In this document: positions 1 through 12,304 of the stretch, one piece after another | How the letters are laid out: each line of letters begins with the position of its first letter | How positions within the stretch are numbered: the stretch's first letter is position 1 | Assembly: GCF_013343215.1 (NCBI RefSeq) | Contig: NZ_CP039150.1 | Span: 1 to 12,304 of the forward strand | Source of the DNA: Acinetobacter sp. 10FS3-1 | GTDB taxonomy: Bacteria; Pseudomonadota; Gammaproteobacteria; Pseudomonadales; Moraxellaceae | Direction of reading: 5' to 3' | DNA: 12,304 bases | Position numbers and translations under genes: made by a program | The notes under the pieces: model-generated | Database searches by the model: none | What the model saw: only the letters and a program-made list of their open reading frames with translations | What the model was told of the DNA's origin: nothing

Positions 1-40
1 AAATGCTTGAAATTTCCCTATAGGCATCAATATCTTAGTT

Positions 41-6573: not shown

Positions 6574-7461
6574 TTATTTTAAGATGAGTTTTGAGTACTT
6601 AATTATATGGTCTGTAACACTTTCTAAATGGTAAGGTTGATGAATCCAATGATGCCAGTAGAGTTGAACTTTATTTTCTAATTCTGGACATAAATCAATC
6701 ATTTCATCTTGATCATAGAGGCTATTTAATTGGAATTCTGGAACCATTCCGTAACCTATTCCAAGTCGTATAGCGGTCAAAAAAGATTCTGAAGAGGGTA
6801 TTAAGTGAAAAGGGTAACTACCCTTTGTTAGACCGAATTGCTTTACTAAAATATCAAAATGAAGATGGTCTTTTTCATTAAATATTACAGCAGGTGCTAA
6901 GCATAGGGCTTGTCTATTTATGCCACTAGCAAACCATTTTTTTATGAATGCTTTTGTTGCGATCATTCTATATTTCATCACACCTAGATATTGAGAATTA
7001 CATCCTTTCATAGGTTTAGGTTCAATTGAGATACACGCATTAACAATTCCTTTTTCTAGTAAGGAATATGTATGAGCCTGATCATCAACGATTAGATTCA
7101 GCAATATTTTATTTTTTATAAGTACATCTTTGAGGGTTGGAAGTAACCAGGTTGCTAGGCTATCGGCATTAGATGCAATAACCACTTTAAAAAATTCAGC
7201 TTGTGACTTATTCATCAAATCATGTAAAAAATTCTGTTCCAATCTTTGACTTTTCTTTAAATATTCAAATACTTGCTGACCTGATGTGGTTAATTTACAA
7301 GGCTTACTACGTATTATTAATAACTGTCCTAATTCTTTTTCTAAAGCTTGCAATCTTAAGGTTACAGCAGATGGAGTCAGGCAGAGCATTTTTCCTGCCT
7401 GATCGAAACTACCAGTCTCAACTACCGCTAAAAAGGCTTCGCATTGTTTTTTTTCTAACAT
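6574..7461 (-). CDS. LysR-family regulator, ArgP/LysG type
   Basis: The 295-residue protein has the usual LTTR length. An N-terminal winged helix-turn-helix spans about 17-45 (SFDQAGKMLCLTPSAVTLRLQALEKELG region). The effector domain resembles E. coli ArgP: SNADSLATWLLPTL (97-110), ISIEPKP, and near the C-terminus IDLCPELENKVQLYWHHW. ArgP/LysG senses lysine or arginine and activates the divergently transcribed amino acid exporter gene, and here the divergent neighbour is such an exporter. The LTTR box at 7486-7506 lies between them. ATG 7461 lacks a clear Shine-Dalgarno sequence. The C-terminus ends 26 bp from pdif3. The effector (Lys, Arg or another cationic amino acid) cannot be told from the sequence. 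Confidence 0.9.
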   Translation of the reverse strand: MLEKKQCEAFLAVVETGSFDQAGKMLCLTPSAVTLRLQALEKELGQLLIIRSKPCKLTTSGQQVFEYLKKSQRLEQNFLHDLMNKSQAEFFKVVIASNADSLATWLLPTLKDVLIKNKILLNLIVDDQAHTYSLLEKGIVNACISIEPKPMKGCNSQYLGVMKYRMIATKAFIKKWFASGINRQALCLAPAVIFNEKDHLHFDILVKQFGLTKGSYPFHLIPSSESFLTAIRLGIGYGMVPEFQLNSLYDQDEMIDLCPELENKVQLYWHHWIHQPYHLESVTDHIIKYSKLILK

Positions 7462-7558: not shown

Positions 7559-8155
7559 ATGGTTACATTTTTAACAGGATTGGGGGTTGGGTTTTCTCTC
7601 ATATTAGCCATTGGTGCTCAAAATGCTTTTGTTCTGAGACAAGGACTTAAGCGTGAATATGTTTTTAGTGTTTGTCTTATATGCGCCTTATCTGACTCTA
7701 TTCTTATTTATTTAGGAACTACAGGATTCTCAAAGATCGTTGAAGAATTTCCTTTAATTACTATTTTTGCTCAATATTTTGGAGCTGTATTTTTATTCAT
7801 TTATGGTTTGAGAAGCTTCTATTCAGCTTTTAGAAAACATACGCGTCTTGATCCGAGTAATATTGAAAAAGCTAATATTTATCATGTGCTAGGTACTTGT
7901 TTAGCATTTACCTGGCTCAACCCTCATGTTTACTTAGATACCGTTGTACTAATGGGTTCTATTTCCACGAACTTTGAAAGCGAGCTGCATATATTTACTA
8001 TGGGAGCAATCCTATCTTCTTGGATATTCTTCTTTTCTTTAGGACATGGAGCAAAATTTCTATTACCGCTATTCCAAAGTTCTATTTCATGGAAAATTTT
8101 AGATTTCCTCATAGGCATAATTATGTGGGTTATAGCTGTAAATCTCTTGTTCTAA
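7559..8155 (+). CDS. LysE/ArgO-family basic amino acid exporter
   Basis: This 198-residue inner-membrane protein belongs to the LysE/RhtB superfamily. The family signature GAQNAF (19-24) follows the first hydrophobic helix, and WLNPHVYLDT (119-128) is the diagnostic ArgO/LysE motif. About six hydrophobic segments are visible (near 5-25, 36-56, 66-86, 110-131, 143-163 and 178-198). The family exports lysine, arginine or toxic analogues with proton counter-flow. Pairing with an ArgP/LysG regulator supports cationic amino acids as substrate. ATG 7559 has only a weak ribosome-binding site. No terminator is seen before pdif4; readthrough would reach the terminator at 8225-8253, which belongs to the next module. 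Confidence 0.9.
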   Translation: MVTFLTGLGVGFSLILAIGAQNAFVLRQGLKREYVFSVCLICALSDSILIYLGTTGFSKIVEEFPLITIFAQYFGAVFLFIYGLRSFYSAFRKHTRLDPSNIEKANIYHVLGTCLAFTWLNPHVYLDTVVLMGSISTNFESELHIFTMGAILSSWIFFFSLGHGAKFLLPLFQSSISWKILDFLIGIIMWVIAVNLLF

Positions 8156-8297: not shown

Positions 8298-8630
8298 TTA
8301 CGCACCTAAACGCATTAACTTTTCTTGAATCGCATCACTGACAAAGGCATTTAGAGAATTACTTGATGCTAAAACCGCCTTACGGTGTAATTCAGGGCTA
8401 ATACGGACATTAAAAGTGCCTTTGAATGGTTGATCAGGAGATTTTCCTAGTTCAGCACATGATTCTAAATAGCCGTCTACAGATTCCTGAAAAGCTTTCT
8501 CAAGGGCTTTTAAAGTTTCCGCTTCATAGGTAATAAGATCACGAATAAAAGCAAGTTTTCCAAATAACTCACCTGTTTCAAGATCAGGCTCAATTGTTCC
8601 GAGATAACCTTTGTATTTTAAATAGCTCAT
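8298..8630 (-). CDS. hicB: HicB-family antitoxin
   Basis: The 110-residue protein has the HicB layout: an N-terminal partial RNase H-like fold (YLKYKGYLGTIEPD, then the region around GKLAFIRDLITYEAETL) and a C-terminal ribbon-helix-helix DNA-binding segment FNVRISPELHRKAVL followed by SLNAFVSDAIQEKL (about 73-106). HicB neutralises HicA and represses the operon. Its ATG overlaps the end of hicA by four bases (8627-8630), indicating coupled translation. The toxin-first gene order is normal for hicAB. Together with hicA it fills the short pdif4-pdif5 module, where it could stabilise the plasmid by post-segregational killing. Confidence 0.93.
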   Translation of the reverse strand: MSYLKYKGYLGTIEPDLETGELFGKLAFIRDLITYEAETLKALEKAFQESVDGYLESCAELGKSPDQPFKGTFNVRISPELHRKAVLASSNSLNAFVSDAIQEKLMRLGA

Positions 8631-8875
8631 AAAAATCCCTCCTGCTTGAGTGCCTGTTTTACAGCTTTCAATGCCCCACCTTTGATTTCATTTTCAGGGT
8701 GTGGTCTATGCAGTAAAATCATATGTTCAGTTTTTTCATTAAAAAACCGAACACGAGAGCCTGCCATTTCAAATTTTTCATAGCCGAGCTGGCTCAGTAA
8801 AACGACTAAATCTTTATATGGAAACGTATTTTTTGAATTTCCAAATTTTTCCAATAACTTTTCCGTTTTACCCAT
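8627..8875 (-). CDS. hicA: HicA-family mRNA interferase toxin
   Basis: The 82-residue protein has the small dsRBD-like HicA fold: GYEKFEMAGSRVRFFN (31-46), then ILLHRPHPENEIKGGALKAV (53-72) and KQAL. HicA proteins cleave mRNA and are inhibited by HicB. The GSHH version of the active site is replaced here by GSRVRF, a variant seen in a HicA subfamily that keeps the HRPHP motif. Whether His56 or His59 takes over catalysis is not known from the sequence. It is the first gene of the operon; a good promoter lies 27-56 bp upstream. Confidence 0.92.
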   Translation of the reverse strand: MGKTEKLLEKFGNSKNTFPYKDLVVLLSQLGYEKFEMAGSRVRFFNEKTEHMILLHRPHPENEIKGGALKAVKQALKQEGFL

Positions 8876-8901: not shown

Positions 8902-8949
8902 AGTATAGTCCCTTGAAATTAAAAAATGCAACTGAATTTAGTTGCATTT
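8902..8949 (-). promoter_or_regulatory. hicAB promoter with inverted-repeat operator
   Basis: On the minus strand, -35 TTGCAT (8926-8931), an 18-bp spacer and -10 TATACT (8902-8907) precede hicA. A perfect 10-bp inverted repeat (8924-8933 with 8940-8949, AAATGCAACT arms, 6-bp centre) covers the -35 box, and a second imperfect one (ACTCAG/CTAAGT, 8888-8905) overlaps the -10. Both are plausible HicB operators. The outer repeat overlaps pdif5 by four bases, so the promoter only just fits inside its module. Confidence 0.65.
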
Positions 8950-8973
8950 CATATAATCGCCATTATGTTAAAT
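8946..8973 (+). other. pdif5: XerC/XerD recombination site, centre TCGCCA
   Basis: XerC-type arm ATTTCATATAA (8946-8956), centre TCGCCA (8957-8962) and XerD-type arm TTATGTTAAAT (8963-8973). It faces pdif4 across hicAB, giving the opposed-site arrangement common for toxin-antitoxin pdif modules. Confidence 0.9.
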
Positions 8974-8979
8974 AGAATA

Positions 8980-9008
8980 AAAAGGGACCTCAGATTTGGG
9001 TCCCTTTT
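8980..9008 (-). terminator. Terminator of the crcB-ppa operon
   Basis: Ten-base arms AAAAGGGACC (8980-8989) and GGTCCCTTTT (8999-9008) close a 9-nt loop, with T-runs on both sides. It starts seven bases after the ppa stop codon on the minus strand and lies directly next to pdif5. Confidence 0.88.
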
Positions 9009-9015
9009 ATCTAAA

Positions 9016-9540
9016 TTATTTGTATGCTTGGATAGATTTTAGAATCTCCTGTCTGGCTTCTTCTACATTGCCCCAACCATTAAATTTCATCCATTTACCT
9101 TTTTCCAAGTCTTTATAATGTTCAAAGAAATGTTTCATTTGATCTAATTGAAGCTGAGGGAGGTCGCTCAGATCTTCAACATTGTTATATAGAGGTGTGA
9201 GCTTAGAATGAGGTACAGCAATGATCTTTGCATCAATACCGGCTTCATCTTCCATATACATGACTCCGACAGGTCTGCTGCGAATTACTGATCCTACAGC
9301 AACCGCATGGGGAGCTATTACAAATACATCTAAGGGATCACCATCCTCGCTTAATGTTTGAGGAATATAACCGTAATTGTACGGATATGACATTGCTGTA
9401 CTTAGAAAGCGATCAACCAATAAAGCATCATATTCTTTATTCACTTCATACTTGATGGGTTTAGCATTTGCCGGGATTTCGATGATGCTATTAAAGTCAT
9501 CTGGTGGATTAGTACCTGCTTTAACATTTTTAAAAGTCAT
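9016..9540 (-). CDS. ppa: Inorganic pyrophosphatase (family I, soluble)
   Basis: The 174-residue enzyme hydrolyses pyrophosphate to two phosphates in the cytoplasm with Mg2+. It matches E. coli Ppa (about 176 residues) closely: IEIPANAKPIKYEV (20-33), VDRFLSTAMSYPYNYGYIPQT (42-62), the signature DGDPLDV (66-72) carrying three metal-binding aspartates, DEAGIDAK (98-105) and HFFEHYKDLEKGKW. The catalytic set looks intact. It follows crcB by 26 bp, with its own ribosome-binding site (AGAAGG at 9548-9553). Both are downstream of a fluoride riboswitch. Family I pyrophosphatases are classic targets of fluoride inhibition, so an extra inducible copy would restore activity under fluoride stress. Whether this copy is itself less sensitive cannot be read from the sequence. 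Confidence 0.96.
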   Translation of the reverse strand: MTFKNVKAGTNPPDDFNSIIEIPANAKPIKYEVNKEYDALLVDRFLSTAMSYPYNYGYIPQTLSEDGDPLDVFVIAPHAVAVGSVIRSRPVGVMYMEDEAGIDAKIIAVPHSKLTPLYNNVEDLSDLPQLQLDQMKHFFEHYKDLEKGKWMKFNGWGNVEEARQEILKSIQAYK

Positions 9541-9566
9541 TGTTTTACCTTCTAATATTTAGATTA

Positions 9567-9947
9567 TTAATGATTAGTGAAAAATTGATAGGAAAGTATT
9601 CCTAGTACTGTAAAGATTAATGAACCTATTACATGGATGGCTATTGTTGAGATAGCATATTCAAACTTTGAAGCTTGTAGCAACGCAACAATTTCAACTG
9701 AAAATGTTGAAAAGGTCGTTAAAGCACCGCAGAAGCCTGTCACAACGAATAACTTATAATTAGGGCTTATTGAGCTATTTGAAAAAAATGATACAGCTAA
9801 TCCAATAATAAAAGCACCGATTAAGTTAACAATCACTGTCCCGAAAGGAATATTTTCAAATACGCTATTAAATCTTAGACTTATGCCCCAACGAAGCCAG
9901 GCACCGATTACAGAACCGAGAGCAATTGATAAAAGAGAAAGATACAT
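9567..9947 (-). CDS. crcB: Fluoride channel/exporter CrcB (Fluc)
   Basis: The 126-residue, four-helix membrane protein is of normal Fluc length. Markers are GSVIGAWLRWG (11-21), the conserved Asn in VNLIGAF (40-46), and GFCGALTTFSTFSVE (71-85), which holds the central-sodium and phenylalanine-box residues. Fluc proteins work as antiparallel dimers that let cytoplasmic fluoride leak out; a single symmetric-type gene is enough here. AGGAG (9953-9957) precedes ATG 9947 at good distance. The 5' leader of about 180 nt holds a fluoride aptamer and a terminator, so expression should rise when fluoride enters the cell. It is co-transcribed with ppa. Confidence 0.95.
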   Translation of the reverse strand: MYLSLLSIALGSVIGAWLRWGISLRFNSVFENIPFGTVIVNLIGAFIIGLAVSFFSNSSISPNYKLFVVTGFCGALTTFSTFSVEIVALLQASKFEYAISTIAIHVIGSLIFTVLGILSYQFFTNH

Positions 9948-10028
9948 GTCTGCTCCTAGTTATGAGCAGCAAAAGATATATAAATAAAGAACTTTATGAC
10001 GGGAAAACATAGCGTAGCTCCATTTTGT

Positions 10029-10059
10029 AAAAGCAGAGCACGCGACTACGTACCCTGCT
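10029..10059 (-). terminator. Riboswitch-controlled terminator upstream of crcB
   Basis: Reading the minus strand, AGCAGGGTACG and CGTGCTCTGCT (10049-10059 with 10032-10042) form an 11-bp stem with two G-U pairs and a 6-nt loop, followed by TTTTAC. It lies nine bases beyond the fluoride aptamer and 82 bp before crcB. This is the position of an expression platform: terminate without fluoride, read through when the aptamer is fluoride-bound. Confidence 0.75.
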
Positions 10060-10068
10060 TGAGGGAAA

Positions 10069-10122
10069 CGTAGGTATCATCAGCCAGAATTGGCGGTTTG
10101 TGTAAGGAGGATAGCCATCTCC
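10069..10122 (-). ncRNA. Fluoride riboswitch (crcB motif)
   Basis: The minus strand starts with GGAGATGG (10122 down to 10115), continues with a stem containing ATCCTCC, then the conserved AAACCGCC, and closes with GGCTGATGATACCTACG. These are the invariant blocks of the crcB RNA motif in the correct order and spacing: the 5' GGAGATGG strand, the pseudoknot-forming ACCGCC segment and the GCTGATGA-CCTAC 3' strand. The aptamer binds fluoride through Mg2+ ions. It controls the crcB-ppa operon, the expected gene set, which makes the assignment secure without a covariance search. Confidence 0.95.
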
Positions 10123-10132
10123 TTTGAGTACT

Positions 10133-10161
10133 ATTATTTAAAAATTGATTAGCTAATTCAA
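10133..10161 (-). promoter_or_regulatory. Promoter for the fluoride riboswitch operon
   Basis: On the minus strand, -35 TTGAAT (10156-10161), a 17-bp spacer and -10 AATAAT (10133-10138) stand just upstream of the aptamer. Transcription would start about 7 bases on, near 10126, leaving just a few bases before GGAGATGG. The match to consensus is moderate; position is the better argument. Confidence 0.55.
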
Positions 10162-10279
10162 CAACCTTCTATTATTAAAATACGTAAGTTTGATACTTTT
10201 TTATCTTTAGTTTAGTAAAACTTGAAACTTTTCATTTTTTCTATAATCTTTTTGGAAAGGGTGTCCAGCTAAGCTGAGG

Positions 10280-10328
10280 CAGGTGTTTGTTGTAGTCGGG
10301 CCGCTACAATATTGATAAAGAGCACCTG
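10280..10328 (+). promoter_or_regulatory. Nested hairpin leader before the small unknown gene
   Basis: CAGGTG (10280-10285) pairs with CACCTG (10323-10328), directly before ATG 10330. Nested within it TTGTAG (10290-10295) pairs with CTACAA (10304-10309). The outer arm lies beside the start codon, so the structure could mask translation initiation. A palindrome CAGCT-A-AGCTG (10266-10276) precedes it. No known riboswitch class is recognised. Confidence 0.35.
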
Positions 10329-10329
10329 T

Positions 10330-10539
10330 ATGTTTAATTTCAAGATTTTTAATAAAGTCTCTACGGAAGTATTGACGATCAAAAATGACCTTCAGCTTAA
10401 TGCTGAGCTGCAATTAATTAATAAATATAAAACGGCTATTTCTGAAGATTATAAACAGGCTATTGTTTTGATCTTTAAAGAACGTGGCTATACACGTTTG
10501 GAAATAGGTCAATTACTTGGGGAGCTAAAAGCTTCATAA
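10330..10539 (+). CDS. Small hypothetical protein, 69 residues
   Basis: The preferred start is ATG 10330 with a weak AAAGAG upstream; a TTG start at 10312 would add six residues. The protein is mostly helical and charged (LQLNAELQLINKYKTA, then EDYKQAIVLIFKERGY). It ends in TRLEIGQLLGELKAS, a segment with the spacing of a short helix-turn-helix but too short to call. It lies between the divergent fluoride operon and the SulP gene, on the same strand as the latter. Its own hairpin follows at 10554-10580, so it is probably transcribed alone. I do not recognise the family; a regulator of a neighbour is possible but unproven. Confidence 0.5.
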   Translation: MFNFKIFNKVSTEVLTIKNDLQLNAELQLINKYKTAISEDYKQAIVLIFKERGYTRLEIGQLLGELKAS

Positions 10540-10784: not shown

Positions 10785-12245
10785 ATGTTTATGTTATCTA
10801 ATGTCCGAGAACAGTGGTTCTCTAACATCCGTGGGGATGTACTTGCCGGATTAGTCGTCGGTCTTGCACTCATCCCTGAAGCCATCGCATTTTCAATTAT
10901 TGCAGGTGTAGATCCTAAAGTCGGTCTATATGCATCCTTTTGTATTGCCGTCGTGATTTCTTTCGTAGGTGGTCGTCCTGCCATGATTTCAGCTGCCACC
11001 GGGGCTATGGCACTGCTTATGATCACATTGGTCAAAGAGCATGGGCTTGAATATCTGCTGGCAGCAACAATTTTGACAGGCGTGATTCAAATATTGGCAG
11101 GCTATTTAAAGCTTGCCAAGTTAATGCGGTTCGTATCTAAATCTGTGGTTATTGGATTCGTAAATGCGTTAGCGATCTTAATTTTTATGGCTCAGTTGCC
11201 TGAACTGATTAATGTGACTTGGCATGTATATGCTCTAGTTGCTTTAGGTTTGGCGATTATTTATCTCTTCCCTCTGGTTCCCAAATTAGGAAAATTACTC
11301 CCTTCTCCACTAGTCTGCATCATTGCAATCACATTATTGGCAATCGCTTTAGGAATTGATGTACGGACCGTGGGCGATATGGGGTCTTTACCTGACACAC
11401 TTCCAATGTTCTTGATTCCAAATATTCCTTTGAATATTGAAACATTGATGATTATTTTGCCTTATTCAGTCGCACTGGCGGCTGTAGGTTTACTTGAATC
11501 GATGATGACAGCAACTATCGTGGATGAAATGACAGATACGCCAAGTGATAAATATCAGGAATGTAAGGGACAAGGGATTGCGAATATTGCTTCTGGCTTT
11601 ATGGGTGGCATGGCCGGTTGTGCCATGATTGGCCAATCTATGATTAACGTAAAATCAGGCGGCCTTACACGCTTATCAACATTCTCTGCGGGTATTTTTC
11701 TTCTTATTCTGGTTGTATTTATTAGCGACTGGCTCAAAGTGATTCCAATGGCTGCATTGGTAGCGGTAATGATCATGGTCTCTATTAGTACTTTTGAATG
11801 GAGTTCTGTCACTCAGTTAAAAGATAATCCTAAGAGTAGTAATATCGTCATGATTGCGACAGTGATTGTAGTTGTTGCTACGCATAACTTGGCTCTAGGT
11901 GTATTAACGGGCGTATTGCTTTCAGCCTTGTTCTTGGCGAATAAACTTGAAAATGATATCCAGGTGACAGCTTCTTTTGAGGGAACGGCCCGTTTGTATG
12001 ATTTGAGAGGTCAGATCTTCTTTAGTTCTTCTGAAAAATTCATGCAAGGTTTTGACTTTAAAGAGGATGTAAAGGATGTGATTATTGATTTGACCCATTC
12101 TCACATTTGGGACGTAACATCAGTCGCCATGCTTGATTCTGTTGTAAATAAATTTCAAAAGAATGGTGTGAATGTCACTGTGCGTGGCTTAAATGAAGCT
12201 AGCTCTATCATGATTGATAAGTATGGAACACATGCCAGAATCTAA
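10785..12245 (+). CDS. SulP/SLC26-family inorganic anion transporter
   Basis: The 486-residue inner-membrane protein opens with the SulP signature (DVLAGLVVGLALIPEAIAF at 18-36, then GVDPKVGLYASF and ISAATGAMALLM). Multiple hydrophobic helices fill about residues 18-390. The C-terminal 90 residues form a STAS domain (LYDLRGQIFFSSSEKF and DLTHSHIWDVTSVAMLDSVV). Members carry sulfate, bicarbonate or other anions, so the substrate cannot be assigned from sequence alone. It is shorter than typical 550-residue members but has both domains. ATG 10785 is the first start; ATG 10791 is a possible alternative, and neither has a strong ribosome-binding site. It shares the pdif5-pdif6 module with the fluoride operon. 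Whether it contributes to anion stress or is unrelated cargo is open. Confidence 0.93.
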   Translation: MFMLSNVREQWFSNIRGDVLAGLVVGLALIPEAIAFSIIAGVDPKVGLYASFCIAVVISFVGGRPAMISAATGAMALLMITLVKEHGLEYLLAATILTGVIQILAGYLKLAKLMRFVSKSVVIGFVNALAILIFMAQLPELINVTWHVYALVALGLAIIYLFPLVPKLGKLLPSPLVCIIAITLLAIALGIDVRTVGDMGSLPDTLPMFLIPNIPLNIETLMIILPYSVALAAVGLLESMMTATIVDEMTDTPSDKYQECKGQGIANIASGFMGGMAGCAMIGQSMINVKSGGLTRLSTFSAGIFLLILVVFISDWLKVIPMAALVAVMIMVSISTFEWSSVTQLKDNPKSSNIVMIATVIVVVATHNLALGVLTGVLLSALFLANKLENDIQVTASFEGTARLYDLRGQIFFSSSEKFMQGFDFKEDVKDVIIDLTHSHIWDVTSVAMLDSVVNKFQKNGVNVTVRGLNEASSIMIDKYGTHARI

Positions 12246-12280: not shown

Positions 12281-12304
12281 AATTAACATAATACACCTTA
12301 TACG
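12281..12304 (-). other. pdif6: XerC/XerD recombination site cut by the window end
   Basis: The plus strand reads XerD-type arm AATTAACATAA (12281-12291), centre TACACC (12292-12297) and TTATACG (12298-12304), the first seven bases of a XerC-type arm. The window begins AAAT, and joining end to start gives TTATACGAAAT, a full XerC arm. The site therefore continues to position 4 on a circular molecule. Orientation and centre match pdif4. Confidence 0.88.

What the first reader, a model, noticed from the sequence alone, without database searches (positions are those of the whole stretch)
8980..10161. Mobile fluoride-defence unit: riboswitch, fluoride channel and extra pyrophosphatase in one operon
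Seen: a fluoride aptamer, terminator, crcB and ppa in series on one strand, closed by a terminator next to pdif5. Known: Fluc exports fluoride, family I pyrophosphatase is strongly inhibited by fluoride, and the crcB motif switches genes on with fluoride. Inferred: the plasmid supplies both efflux and target-enzyme replacement under one sensor. As cargo of a Xer-mobile module this would be a transmissible fluoride-resistance cassette, which I do not know to be described for Acinetobacter pdif plasmids.
Basis: partly seen in the sequence, partly recalled or inferred. Interest (0 to 1): 0.8.

Follow-up and report, generated by a model that had tools for sequence, protein, structure and literature searches.

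The report
Mobile fluoride-defence genes with fluoride sensor
A small Acinetobacter plasmid carries, inside a swappable DNA block, a fluoride-sensing RNA that appears to switch on a fluoride exporter and a spare copy of a fluoride-sensitive enzyme, probably by letting ribosomes start on a tiny leader peptide first.

Summary
RF01734 matches 10131-10064(-) at 46.0 bits (gathering score 34), followed by crcB, ppa, a strong terminator and a pdif site. The window is one whole 12,304-bp contig. The operon sits in a 3.36-kb dif module (pdif 8946-8973 to pdif 12281-12308, circular) with an nhaA-I (Li+-I class) RNA, a 69-aa ORF and sulP. Four other plasmids carry that block at 97.7-98.4% identity, ending at the pdif sites, in largely unrelated backbones.

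Not supported: a terminator between aptamer and crcB. In 72 related leaders three hairpins are conserved; the middle one excludes the other two. The last hides a Shine-Dalgarno, of crcB itself in short leaders or of a 14-30-codon leader ORF ending near crcB in long ones, as here. I read it as a translational ON switch coupled through a leader peptide. No experiment tests this; equilibrium folding supports it only partly.

Riboswitch-crcB-pyrophosphatase operons on mobile DNA are known in kind (E. cloacae GI3; P. syringae pFKN). My searches found no report of a fluoride dif module.

The parts
8946..8973 (+). pdif site (XerC/XerD orientation), left end of the dif module
   Evidence: 28-bp match, 1 mismatch; identity to four other plasmids begins within 2 bases of its first base
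8980..9008 (-). intrinsic terminator closing the operon
   Evidence: hairpin AAAAGGGACC/GGTCCCTTTT, -18.2 kcal/mol, z -3.9
9016..9540 (-). ppa, family I inorganic pyrophosphatase, 174 aa
   Evidence: PF00719 194.9 bits; NF002317 270.2 bits; 61% identical to the other copy in the genome
9567..9947 (-). crcB, Fluc fluoride channel, 126 aa
   Evidence: PF02537 97.6 bits; NF010792 158.6 bits
9953..9957 (-). Shine-Dalgarno of crcB, partly in hairpin H4 (CTGCTC..GAGCAG)
   Evidence: sequence; P(unpaired) 0.39 in the window, not lower than its shuffles; mean 0.07 over 59 leaders including this one
9960..10010 (-). leader ORF, 16 codons (MFSRHKVLYLYIFCCS), stop 12 nt before crcB
   Evidence: 59 of 60 distinct long leaders have such an ORF
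10012..10043 (-). hairpin H3, arms 10043-10036 and 10020-10012, holding most of the leader-ORF Shine-Dalgarno GGAG 10021-10018
   Evidence: 86.3% of cells paired in 72 leaders, 26-61% when slid
10032..10059 (-). hairpin H2 (antisequestor), arms 10059-10049 and 10042-10032; excludes H1 and H3
   Evidence: 87.2% of cells paired, 23-65% when slid; 33 cells changed on both sides against 13.0 in shuffles
10046..10073 (-). hairpin H1, arms 10073-10068/10051-10046 and 10065-10062/10056-10053; takes up the aptamer's 3' tail
   Evidence: 93.9% of cells paired, 29-57% when slid
10064..10131 (-). fluoride riboswitch aptamer
   Evidence: RF01734 46.0 bits
10133..10161 (-). candidate promoter TTGAAT-17-AATAAT
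   Evidence: consensus match only, not above chance in number
10259..10309 (+). nhaA-I RNA (Li+-I riboswitch class), divergent neighbour in the same dif module
   Evidence: RF03057 49.6 bits, gathering score 37
10330..10539 (+). orf69, conserved 69-aa protein of unknown function
   Evidence: 189 homologues found, no Pfam or NCBIfam match
10785..12245 (+). sulP-family anion transporter
   Evidence: PF00916 and STAS; TIGR00815 below its cut-off
12281..12304 (-). pdif site (XerD/XerC), right end of the module; its last 4 bases are window 1-4 of the circle
   Evidence: 1 mismatch on the circularised contig; contig length 12,304

Best explanation
The plasmid carries a fluoride-defence operon as part of a Xer dif module. 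Fluoride binding to the aptamer holds its 3' tail (CCUAC), so hairpin H1 cannot form fully. The freed strand forms H2, which takes the strand that otherwise pairs with the Shine-Dalgarno sequence in H3. Ribosomes then start on a 16-codon leader ORF that ends 12 nt before crcB. Its translation opens the crcB start region, and CrcB and the downstream pyrophosphatase are made. CrcB lets fluoride out; the extra pyrophosphatase adds dose of a fluoride-sensitive enzyme. Without fluoride, H1 and H3 form and translation is shut. SHOWN by sequence and comparison: aptamer, gene order, module ends, the same module in different backbones, conservation of H1-H3, the leader ORF in 59 of 60 long leaders. INFERRED: fluoride binding, the sign of the switch, coupling through the leader ORF, and the dose role of ppa.
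For: Aptamer 46.0 bits. H1/H2/H3 paired in 93.9/87.2/86.3% of cells against at most 57/65/61% when slid; cells changed on both sides exceed all 500 shuffles for each. In the 13 distinct short leaders the start codon after H3 is that of crcB, and in 11 of them the aligned H3 columns hold a GGAG or GGAA. 59 of 60 distinct long leaders have an ORF starting after H3 with its stop -16 to +16 nt of crcB, three of them starting with GTG at the same place; for 14 classes of ORF length and stop position the chance of such a stop is 0.09-0.29 each. P. syringae pFKN, with a 50%-identical CrcB, shows in its predicted fold H1, H3 and a hairpin over the crcB Shine-Dalgarno, and a TTG leader ORF ending at +7 of crcB. 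With aptamer stems imposed and the RNA starting at the aptamer, the window's best fold is H1+H3 (-34.7) and becomes H2 when the tail is blocked; the Shine-Dalgarno opens from 0.05 to 0.36. The module is the same pdif to pdif in four other plasmids. [quoted passage not shown]
Against: In equilibrium folding of the 72 leaders (four settings), blocking the tail opens the Shine-Dalgarno by more than 0.1 in only 26-31, closes it in 2-5, and changes little in the rest; the control block opened none. Without imposed stems the window shows no opening (0.02-0.04), and in several settings, one with stems imposed, its free fold is already H2. The two measures the tool calls least prone to relatedness are unremarkable for H1 (pairs changed on both sides 100/500, further types 177/500), modest for H2 (26/500, 51/500) and better for H3 (1/500, 28/500). 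One H2 pair fails in 34 and one H3 pair in 37 of 72 sequences. RNAalifold predicts H1 but not H2 or H3. Swapping arms between sequences weakens H2 and H3 only slightly and H1 not at all. The leader ORF shows little coding signature: synonymous share 0.24 against 0.22 expected in the largest class, 0.37 against 0.27 in the next; other frames are open in 17 and 23 of 59; shuffles are stop-free 43% of the time. In the window the crcB Shine-Dalgarno is no more paired than in its shuffles: 80 of 100 are at least as paired. In G057 and G069 no Shine-Dalgarno lies at the H3 columns. 40 of 72 leaders have at least 5 U in 8 nt after H2, so a terminator there is not excluded by sequence alone.
Confidence: 0.68

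Rival explanations
2. The switch acts on translation, and the leader ORF is a by-product of the spacing, not an actor.
For: Little coding signature; the open frame alone is not rare. In 13 distinct short leaders the start after H3 is crcB itself.
Against: Start codon, Shine-Dalgarno and a stop near crcB are kept in 59 of 60 long leaders despite differing lengths. In 52 of 59 long leaders the crcB Shine-Dalgarno is predicted mostly paired (unpaired below 0.3) and would need opening.
Confidence: 0.2
3. The operon is decayed or irrelevant cargo that has drifted along with sulP.
For: The genome already has another crcB and ppa. Only 5 of 72,556 plasmid records hold at least 80% of the operon region.
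Against: Both reading frames and the aptamer are intact. CrcB is 100% identical in four plasmids. CP072554 differs by 14% in CrcB and 9% in Ppa yet keeps aptamer, crcB and ppa.
Confidence: 0.07

Closest known systems
Fluoride-resistance operon of Enterobacter cloacae FRM genomic island GI3 (PMC5533749; passages seen)
   Same: Fluoride riboswitch, crcB and a pyrophosphatase in one fluoride-induced operon on mobile DNA; spare target enzymes plus export.
   Different: Carries ppaC (described in the related Pantoea element as a DHHA2-domain enzyme, PMC5971314 passages) plus uspA, eno and gpmA; transposases on either side, not pdif; a genomic island.
crcB-DUF190-ppa-ung operon of Pseudomonas syringae plasmid pFKN, NC_002759
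   Same: Plasmid-borne RF01734 (50.9 bits), crcB, family I ppa; leader predicted to form H1 and H3, a leader ORF, and a hairpin over the crcB Shine-Dalgarno.
   Different: DUF190 between crcB and ppa, uracil-DNA glycosylase after it; IS66-type elements nearby, pdif not looked for; CrcB 50% and Ppa 62% identical.
Acinetobacter dif modules sulP dif and kup dif (PMC6449649; passages seen)
   Same: pdif-bounded cassette; kup dif has a 210-bp ORF of unknown function, the length of orf69 here; sulP cargo.
   Different: The main text has no mention of crcB, pyrophosphatase or riboswitch. Here the fluoride operon is added inside the sulP module.
B12 riboswitch with leader ORF of ppe2 in Mycobacterium tuberculosis (PMC11260477; abstract and section list seen)
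   Same: A riboswitch controls an upstream ORF whose translation is needed for the downstream gene.
   Different: B12, OFF switch, different genes; shown by experiment there, inferred here.

Membership tests
Fluoride riboswitch (RF01734) | Covariance-model score above the gathering score | tested here: met
   46.0 against 34 bits
Fluoride riboswitch (RF01734) | Next to fluoride-defence genes | tested here: met
   crcB starts 116 nt after the aptamer, then ppa
Fluoride riboswitch (RF01734) | Binds fluoride and raises expression | not testable with these tools
   needs in-line probing or a reporter
Intrinsic-terminator expression platform | G+C hairpin plus U tract between aptamer and gene that excludes the ligand-bound aptamer | tested here: not met
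   none listed; H1, the helix that excludes the aptamer tail, is followed by 5 or more U in 8 nt in 7 of 72 leaders
Translational (Shine-Dalgarno-hiding) platform | Conserved helix over the Shine-Dalgarno and a competing helix | tested here: met
   H3 and H2; not predicted by RNAalifold
Translational (Shine-Dalgarno-hiding) platform | Shine-Dalgarno opens when the aptamer tail is held | tested here: inconclusive
   31 of 72 open with aptamer stems imposed, 3 to 5 close, control 0; 26 or 27 open without imposed stems
Fluc/CrcB fluoride channel | CrcB family match above cut-off | tested here: met
   PF02537, TIGR00494 and NF010792
Fluc/CrcB fluoride channel | Fluoride transport | not testable with these tools
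   flux assay or tolerance test needed
Family I inorganic pyrophosphatase | Family match above cut-off | tested here: met
   PF00719, NF002317
Family I inorganic pyrophosphatase | Activity and fluoride inhibition | not testable with these tools
   enzyme assay needed
dif module | Bounded by two pdif sites in opposite orientation | tested here: met
   C/D 8946, D/C 12281
dif module | Same block in different plasmid backbones, ending at pdif | tested here: met
   97.7-98.4% over 3.36 kb in 4 records; the remainder matches only in pieces of at most 383 bp
dif module | Excision or transfer by XerC/XerD | not testable with these tools
   not observed

The most novel reading that the evidence does not exclude
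In Acinetobacter, and on at least one Pseudomonas plasmid, the fluoride riboswitch often does not act on the channel gene itself. It frees the start of a leader peptide, and translation of that peptide opens a second lock over crcB: a two-step translational relay new for this riboswitch class. Here it travels in a Xer module back to back with a Li+-I class riboswitch that would control a new small protein family, making a mobile block with two ion-sensing RNAs.
Probability: 0.42. Interest if true: 0.65.

Novelty: new variant of a known kind. Interest (0 to 1): 0.5.

Why it matters
It adds fluoride defence to the cargo that Acinetobacter plasmids swap by Xer sites, and would give fluoride-regulated export to a host whose other crcB lies beside no RF01734 match. 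The conserved leader in 72 relatives gives a directly testable model of a riboswitch working through a leader peptide. The same module also holds a Li+-I class RNA ahead of an unstudied protein, so one cassette can be used to study two ion sensors.

Tried and rejected
A terminator between aptamer and crcB: looked for, not supported. H2 as that terminator: rejected mainly because its sign would be wrong, though its U-rich tail is noted.

Stand-alone fluoride dif module: in the plasmids looked at the operon has no intact pdif between it and sulP. One 280-kb contig (G106) has a perfect pdif just after ppa and a 4-mismatch site before the riboswitch, both in the same orientation; not resolved. In CP072554 a half site (ATTTCGCATAA) lies between sulP and ppa.

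Peptide-level selection on the leader ORF: tested; none in the largest class, a small synonymous excess in the next. Enrichment of the operon in genomes without chromosomal riboswitch-crcB: not tested statistically.

orf69 function: no Pfam or NCBIfam match; the one PHROG hit (E 0.16, unknown function) was ignored; AlphaFold model of four helices (pLDDT 83.6); Foldseek in PDB gave nothing below E 4.

Rows dropped: 94 RF01734 matches were examined; 79 had a CrcB match downstream, 6 a pyrophosphatase only, 9 neither. Of 74 distinct leaders with CrcB, G036 (CrcB 42%, start uncertain) and G029:C20 (its leader ORF fell outside my stop limits) were left out, giving 72. The stop limits were set after seeing the data. 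The nhaA-I hit L064 lacked my search motif and was not examined. My first ppa count used some loci in the wrong orientation; one search repeated it in the right one, with the same totals.
Full report
WHAT IS THERE. The window equals one whole contig (G000:C8, 12,304 bp). Its plasmid matches are almost all Acinetobacter (1,053 of 1,089 records), and I take the genus searched to be Acinetobacter. It encodes RepM (NF038290, 427 bits), a MobA/MobL protein and four 22-bp repeats at 1761-1848 that look like iterons. A pdif site is completed only when the ends are joined, so it is most likely a complete circular plasmid. Six pdif sites with at most 3 mismatches were found; 200 shuffles gave 0.015 per window at 4 mismatches and none lower.

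THE FINDING. On the minus strand: RF01734 at 10131-10064 (46.0 bits, gathering score 34), crcB 9947-9567, ppa 9540-9016, a strong terminator hairpin at 9008-8980 and pdif at 8946-8973. The consensus promoter match at 10161-10133 is placed as expected, but such matches are not above chance. The rest of the genome has one more crcB (31% identical) and one more ppa (61% identical), and no other RF01734 match.

THE MOBILE UNIT. No intact pdif separates the fluoride operon from the divergent nhaA-I RNA, orf69 and sulP, so the module is 8946 to 12308 (circular). The block is 97.7-98.4% identical over its full 3.36 kb in CP085285, MK323041, CP077373 (two copies) and CP118966, starting and ending within a few bases of the pdif sites; the rest of those plasmids matches only in short pieces, the longest 383 bp at 76.5%, and their RepM proteins are 28-48% identical to this one. 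CP019145 has the same module without the fluoride genes. CP072554 has the fluoride genes on the other side of sulP, with a half pdif at the join. CP127888 has nhaA-I RNA-orf69 with kup. In the plasmid collection 13 of 72,556 records match the operon region and 5 hold at least 80% of it.

HOW COMMON. RF01734 occurs in 79 of 175 genomes of the genus, over the cut-off in 74. Of 94 matches examined, 79 have CrcB downstream and 17 a pyrophosphatase of this family: 11 with both, 6 with the pyrophosphatase only, 9 with neither; at least 1.5 kb downstream was at hand for 92 of 94. Three contigs (G048:C4, G054:C5, G055:C6) have the lengths of CP118966, CP077373 and CP072554 and are probably the same plasmids, so these counts overlap with the plasmid counts. 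DUF190 was confirmed in the three variants checked. In plasmids, tblastn found CrcB relatives in 1,166 records, Escherichia and Klebsiella making up 986, and Ppa relatives in 120. P. syringae pFKN carries RF01734-crcB-DUF190-ppa-ung.

THE SWITCH. I compared 72 distinct leaders (how they were chosen is in Tried and rejected). Three helices are conserved, and H2 shares a strand with each of the others: H1 pairs the aptamer's 3' tail with a downstream strand, H2 uses that downstream strand, H3 uses the other arm of H2 and hides a Shine-Dalgarno. Cells paired: H1 93.9% (slid controls 29-57%), H2 87.2% (23-65%), H3 86.3% (26-61%). Cells changed on both sides: H1 8 against 2.0 in shuffles, H2 33 against 13.0, H3 10 against 2.7. 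The tool warns that related sequences can exceed shuffles without structure. Its two sturdier measures, pairs with a change on both sides and further pair types, are reached by 100 and 177 of 500 shuffles for H1, 26 and 51 for H2, 1 and 28 for H3. One H2 pair fails in 34 of 72 and one H3 pair in 37 of 72. Exchanging arms between sequences changes mean duplex energy by 1.3 (H2), 1.2 (H3) and 0.0 kcal/mol (H1). RNAalifold on the same alignment predicts the two aptamer stems and H1 only.

THE LEADER ORF. Leaders fall in two kinds. In the 13 distinct short ones (126-139 nt) the start after H3 is crcB; in 2 of these (G057, G069) the aligned H3 columns hold no Shine-Dalgarno. Of 60 distinct long ones, 59 have an ORF of 14-30 codons whose start follows H3 and whose stop lies -16 to +16 nt of the crcB start; three start with GTG at the same place. 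For one sequence of each of 14 classes of length and stop position, a shuffled interior meets that stop window in 9-29% of cases; the classes are related, so I do not treat the product as a probability. The peptide shows little selection on its sequence. The crcB Shine-Dalgarno is predicted mostly paired (unpaired below 0.3) in 52 of 59 long leaders, mean 0.07 against 0.17 in shuffles, but not in the window (0.39; 80 of 100 shuffles are at least as paired). pFKN shows the same layout with different letters: H3 CCTGTCCT/AGGACAGG, a TTG start, and a stop at +7 of crcB.

FOLDING TESTS. For the window the fold H1+H3 scores -35.0 and the H2 fold -37.1 kcal/mol on 124 nt; growing pieces of it show H1 at 88-94 nt and H2 from 100 nt on, while a 191-nt fold prefers H1 and H3. 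With the aptamer stems imposed and the RNA starting at the aptamer, the best fold is H1+H3 and blocking the tail gives H2; Shine-Dalgarno opening rises from 0.05 to 0.36. With stems imposed but seven more 5' bases, the free fold is H2 and opening rises from 0.06 to 0.23. Across 72 leaders with stems imposed, blocking the tail opens the Shine-Dalgarno by more than 0.1 in 31 and closes it in 3 or 5; a control block opens none. It is closed (below 0.3) without a block in 69, or 64 with the longer 5' end. Without imposed stems 26 or 27 open, 2 close, and the window does not open. Thermodynamics therefore fits the model in part. The kinetic argument, that H1 forms first, is inference.

TERMINATOR READING. 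No terminator was listed between aptamer and crcB. At least 5 U in 8 nt follow H1 in 7, H2 in 40 (better of two positions) and H3 in 5 of 72 leaders. H2 with its U-rich tail would terminate when fluoride is bound, the wrong direction for crcB. I give the transcriptional reading 0.15.

WHAT THE GENES WOULD DO. CrcB exports fluoride; pyrophosphatase is fluoride-sensitive and among the genes most often tied to fluoride riboswitches (passages of PMC11139923). In E. cloacae FRM the six-gene operon with crcB and ppaC was induced by fluoride, and knockout and complementation tied it to high resistance (passages of PMC5533749). The dose role of the plasmid ppa is inferred.

PRINT. Searches: pdif + Acinetobacter + fluoride, 1 paper, a phage review by its title, not read; crcB, Acinetobacter and dif module, no paper with all three (ranked by number of terms); fluoride + Acinetobacter + riboswitch + crcB, 9 papers, of one of which I saw passages; fluoride riboswitch + leader peptide, none. 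The main texts of PMC6449649 and PMC13141974 do not contain crcB or pyrophosphatase. PMC10455571 mentions crcB on a plasmid contig of Acinetobacter sp. K1 (passages). PMC9495176 lists fluoride riboswitches in A. baumannii (passages). The original fluoride riboswitch paper is not held, so the Bacillus mechanism and the structural role of the aptamer tail are recalled. Only this library was searched.

VERDICT. The operon and its module are real and belong to known kinds. The translational, leader-ORF form of the switch and the compound module with a second ion riboswitch are the new elements; the first rests on comparison, not experiment.

Noticed in passing
window 10259-10309(+) and 10330-10539(+): An nhaA-I (Li+-I class) RNA sits directly ahead of orf69. 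It occurs in 29 of 175 genomes of the genus, and 29 of the 29 loci examined have an orf69 homologue right after it (nhaA was not searched for). A helix CAGGUGUU/AGCACCUG just before the start codon pairs in 95.8% of cells, at most 46% when slid, in 24 sequences, but only one of its pairs changes on both sides.
   Followed up: partly
L036, L041, L054 (and pdif about 147 nt before the nhaA-I motif in many loci): nhaA-I RNA-orf69 also occurs as a tiny module of about 0.4 kb between two pdif sites, and ahead of kup or sulP elsewhere. The C-terminus of orf69 varies, near where that pdif lies.
   Followed up: partly
L088, L093, L070, L072, L076, L073: Fluoride riboswitches ahead of ppa without a CrcB match; DUF190 confirmed between them in the two of these checked, L088 and L070.
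   Followed up: partly
window 6574-7461(-) and 7559-8155(+): Divergent LysR regulator and LysE-type exporter (closest to lysine/arginine exporters, below NCBIfam cut-offs) between two pdif sites: a possible amino-acid export module.
   Followed up: no
window 8298-8630(-) and 8627-8875(-): Overlapping small genes that plasmid records with similar DNA annotate as HicB/HicA toxin-antitoxin, between pdif 8196 and 8946; no NCBIfam match.
   Followed up: no
L083 (CP077373): The plasmid record contains backbone and module twice in tandem, like a plasmid dimer.
   Followed up: no
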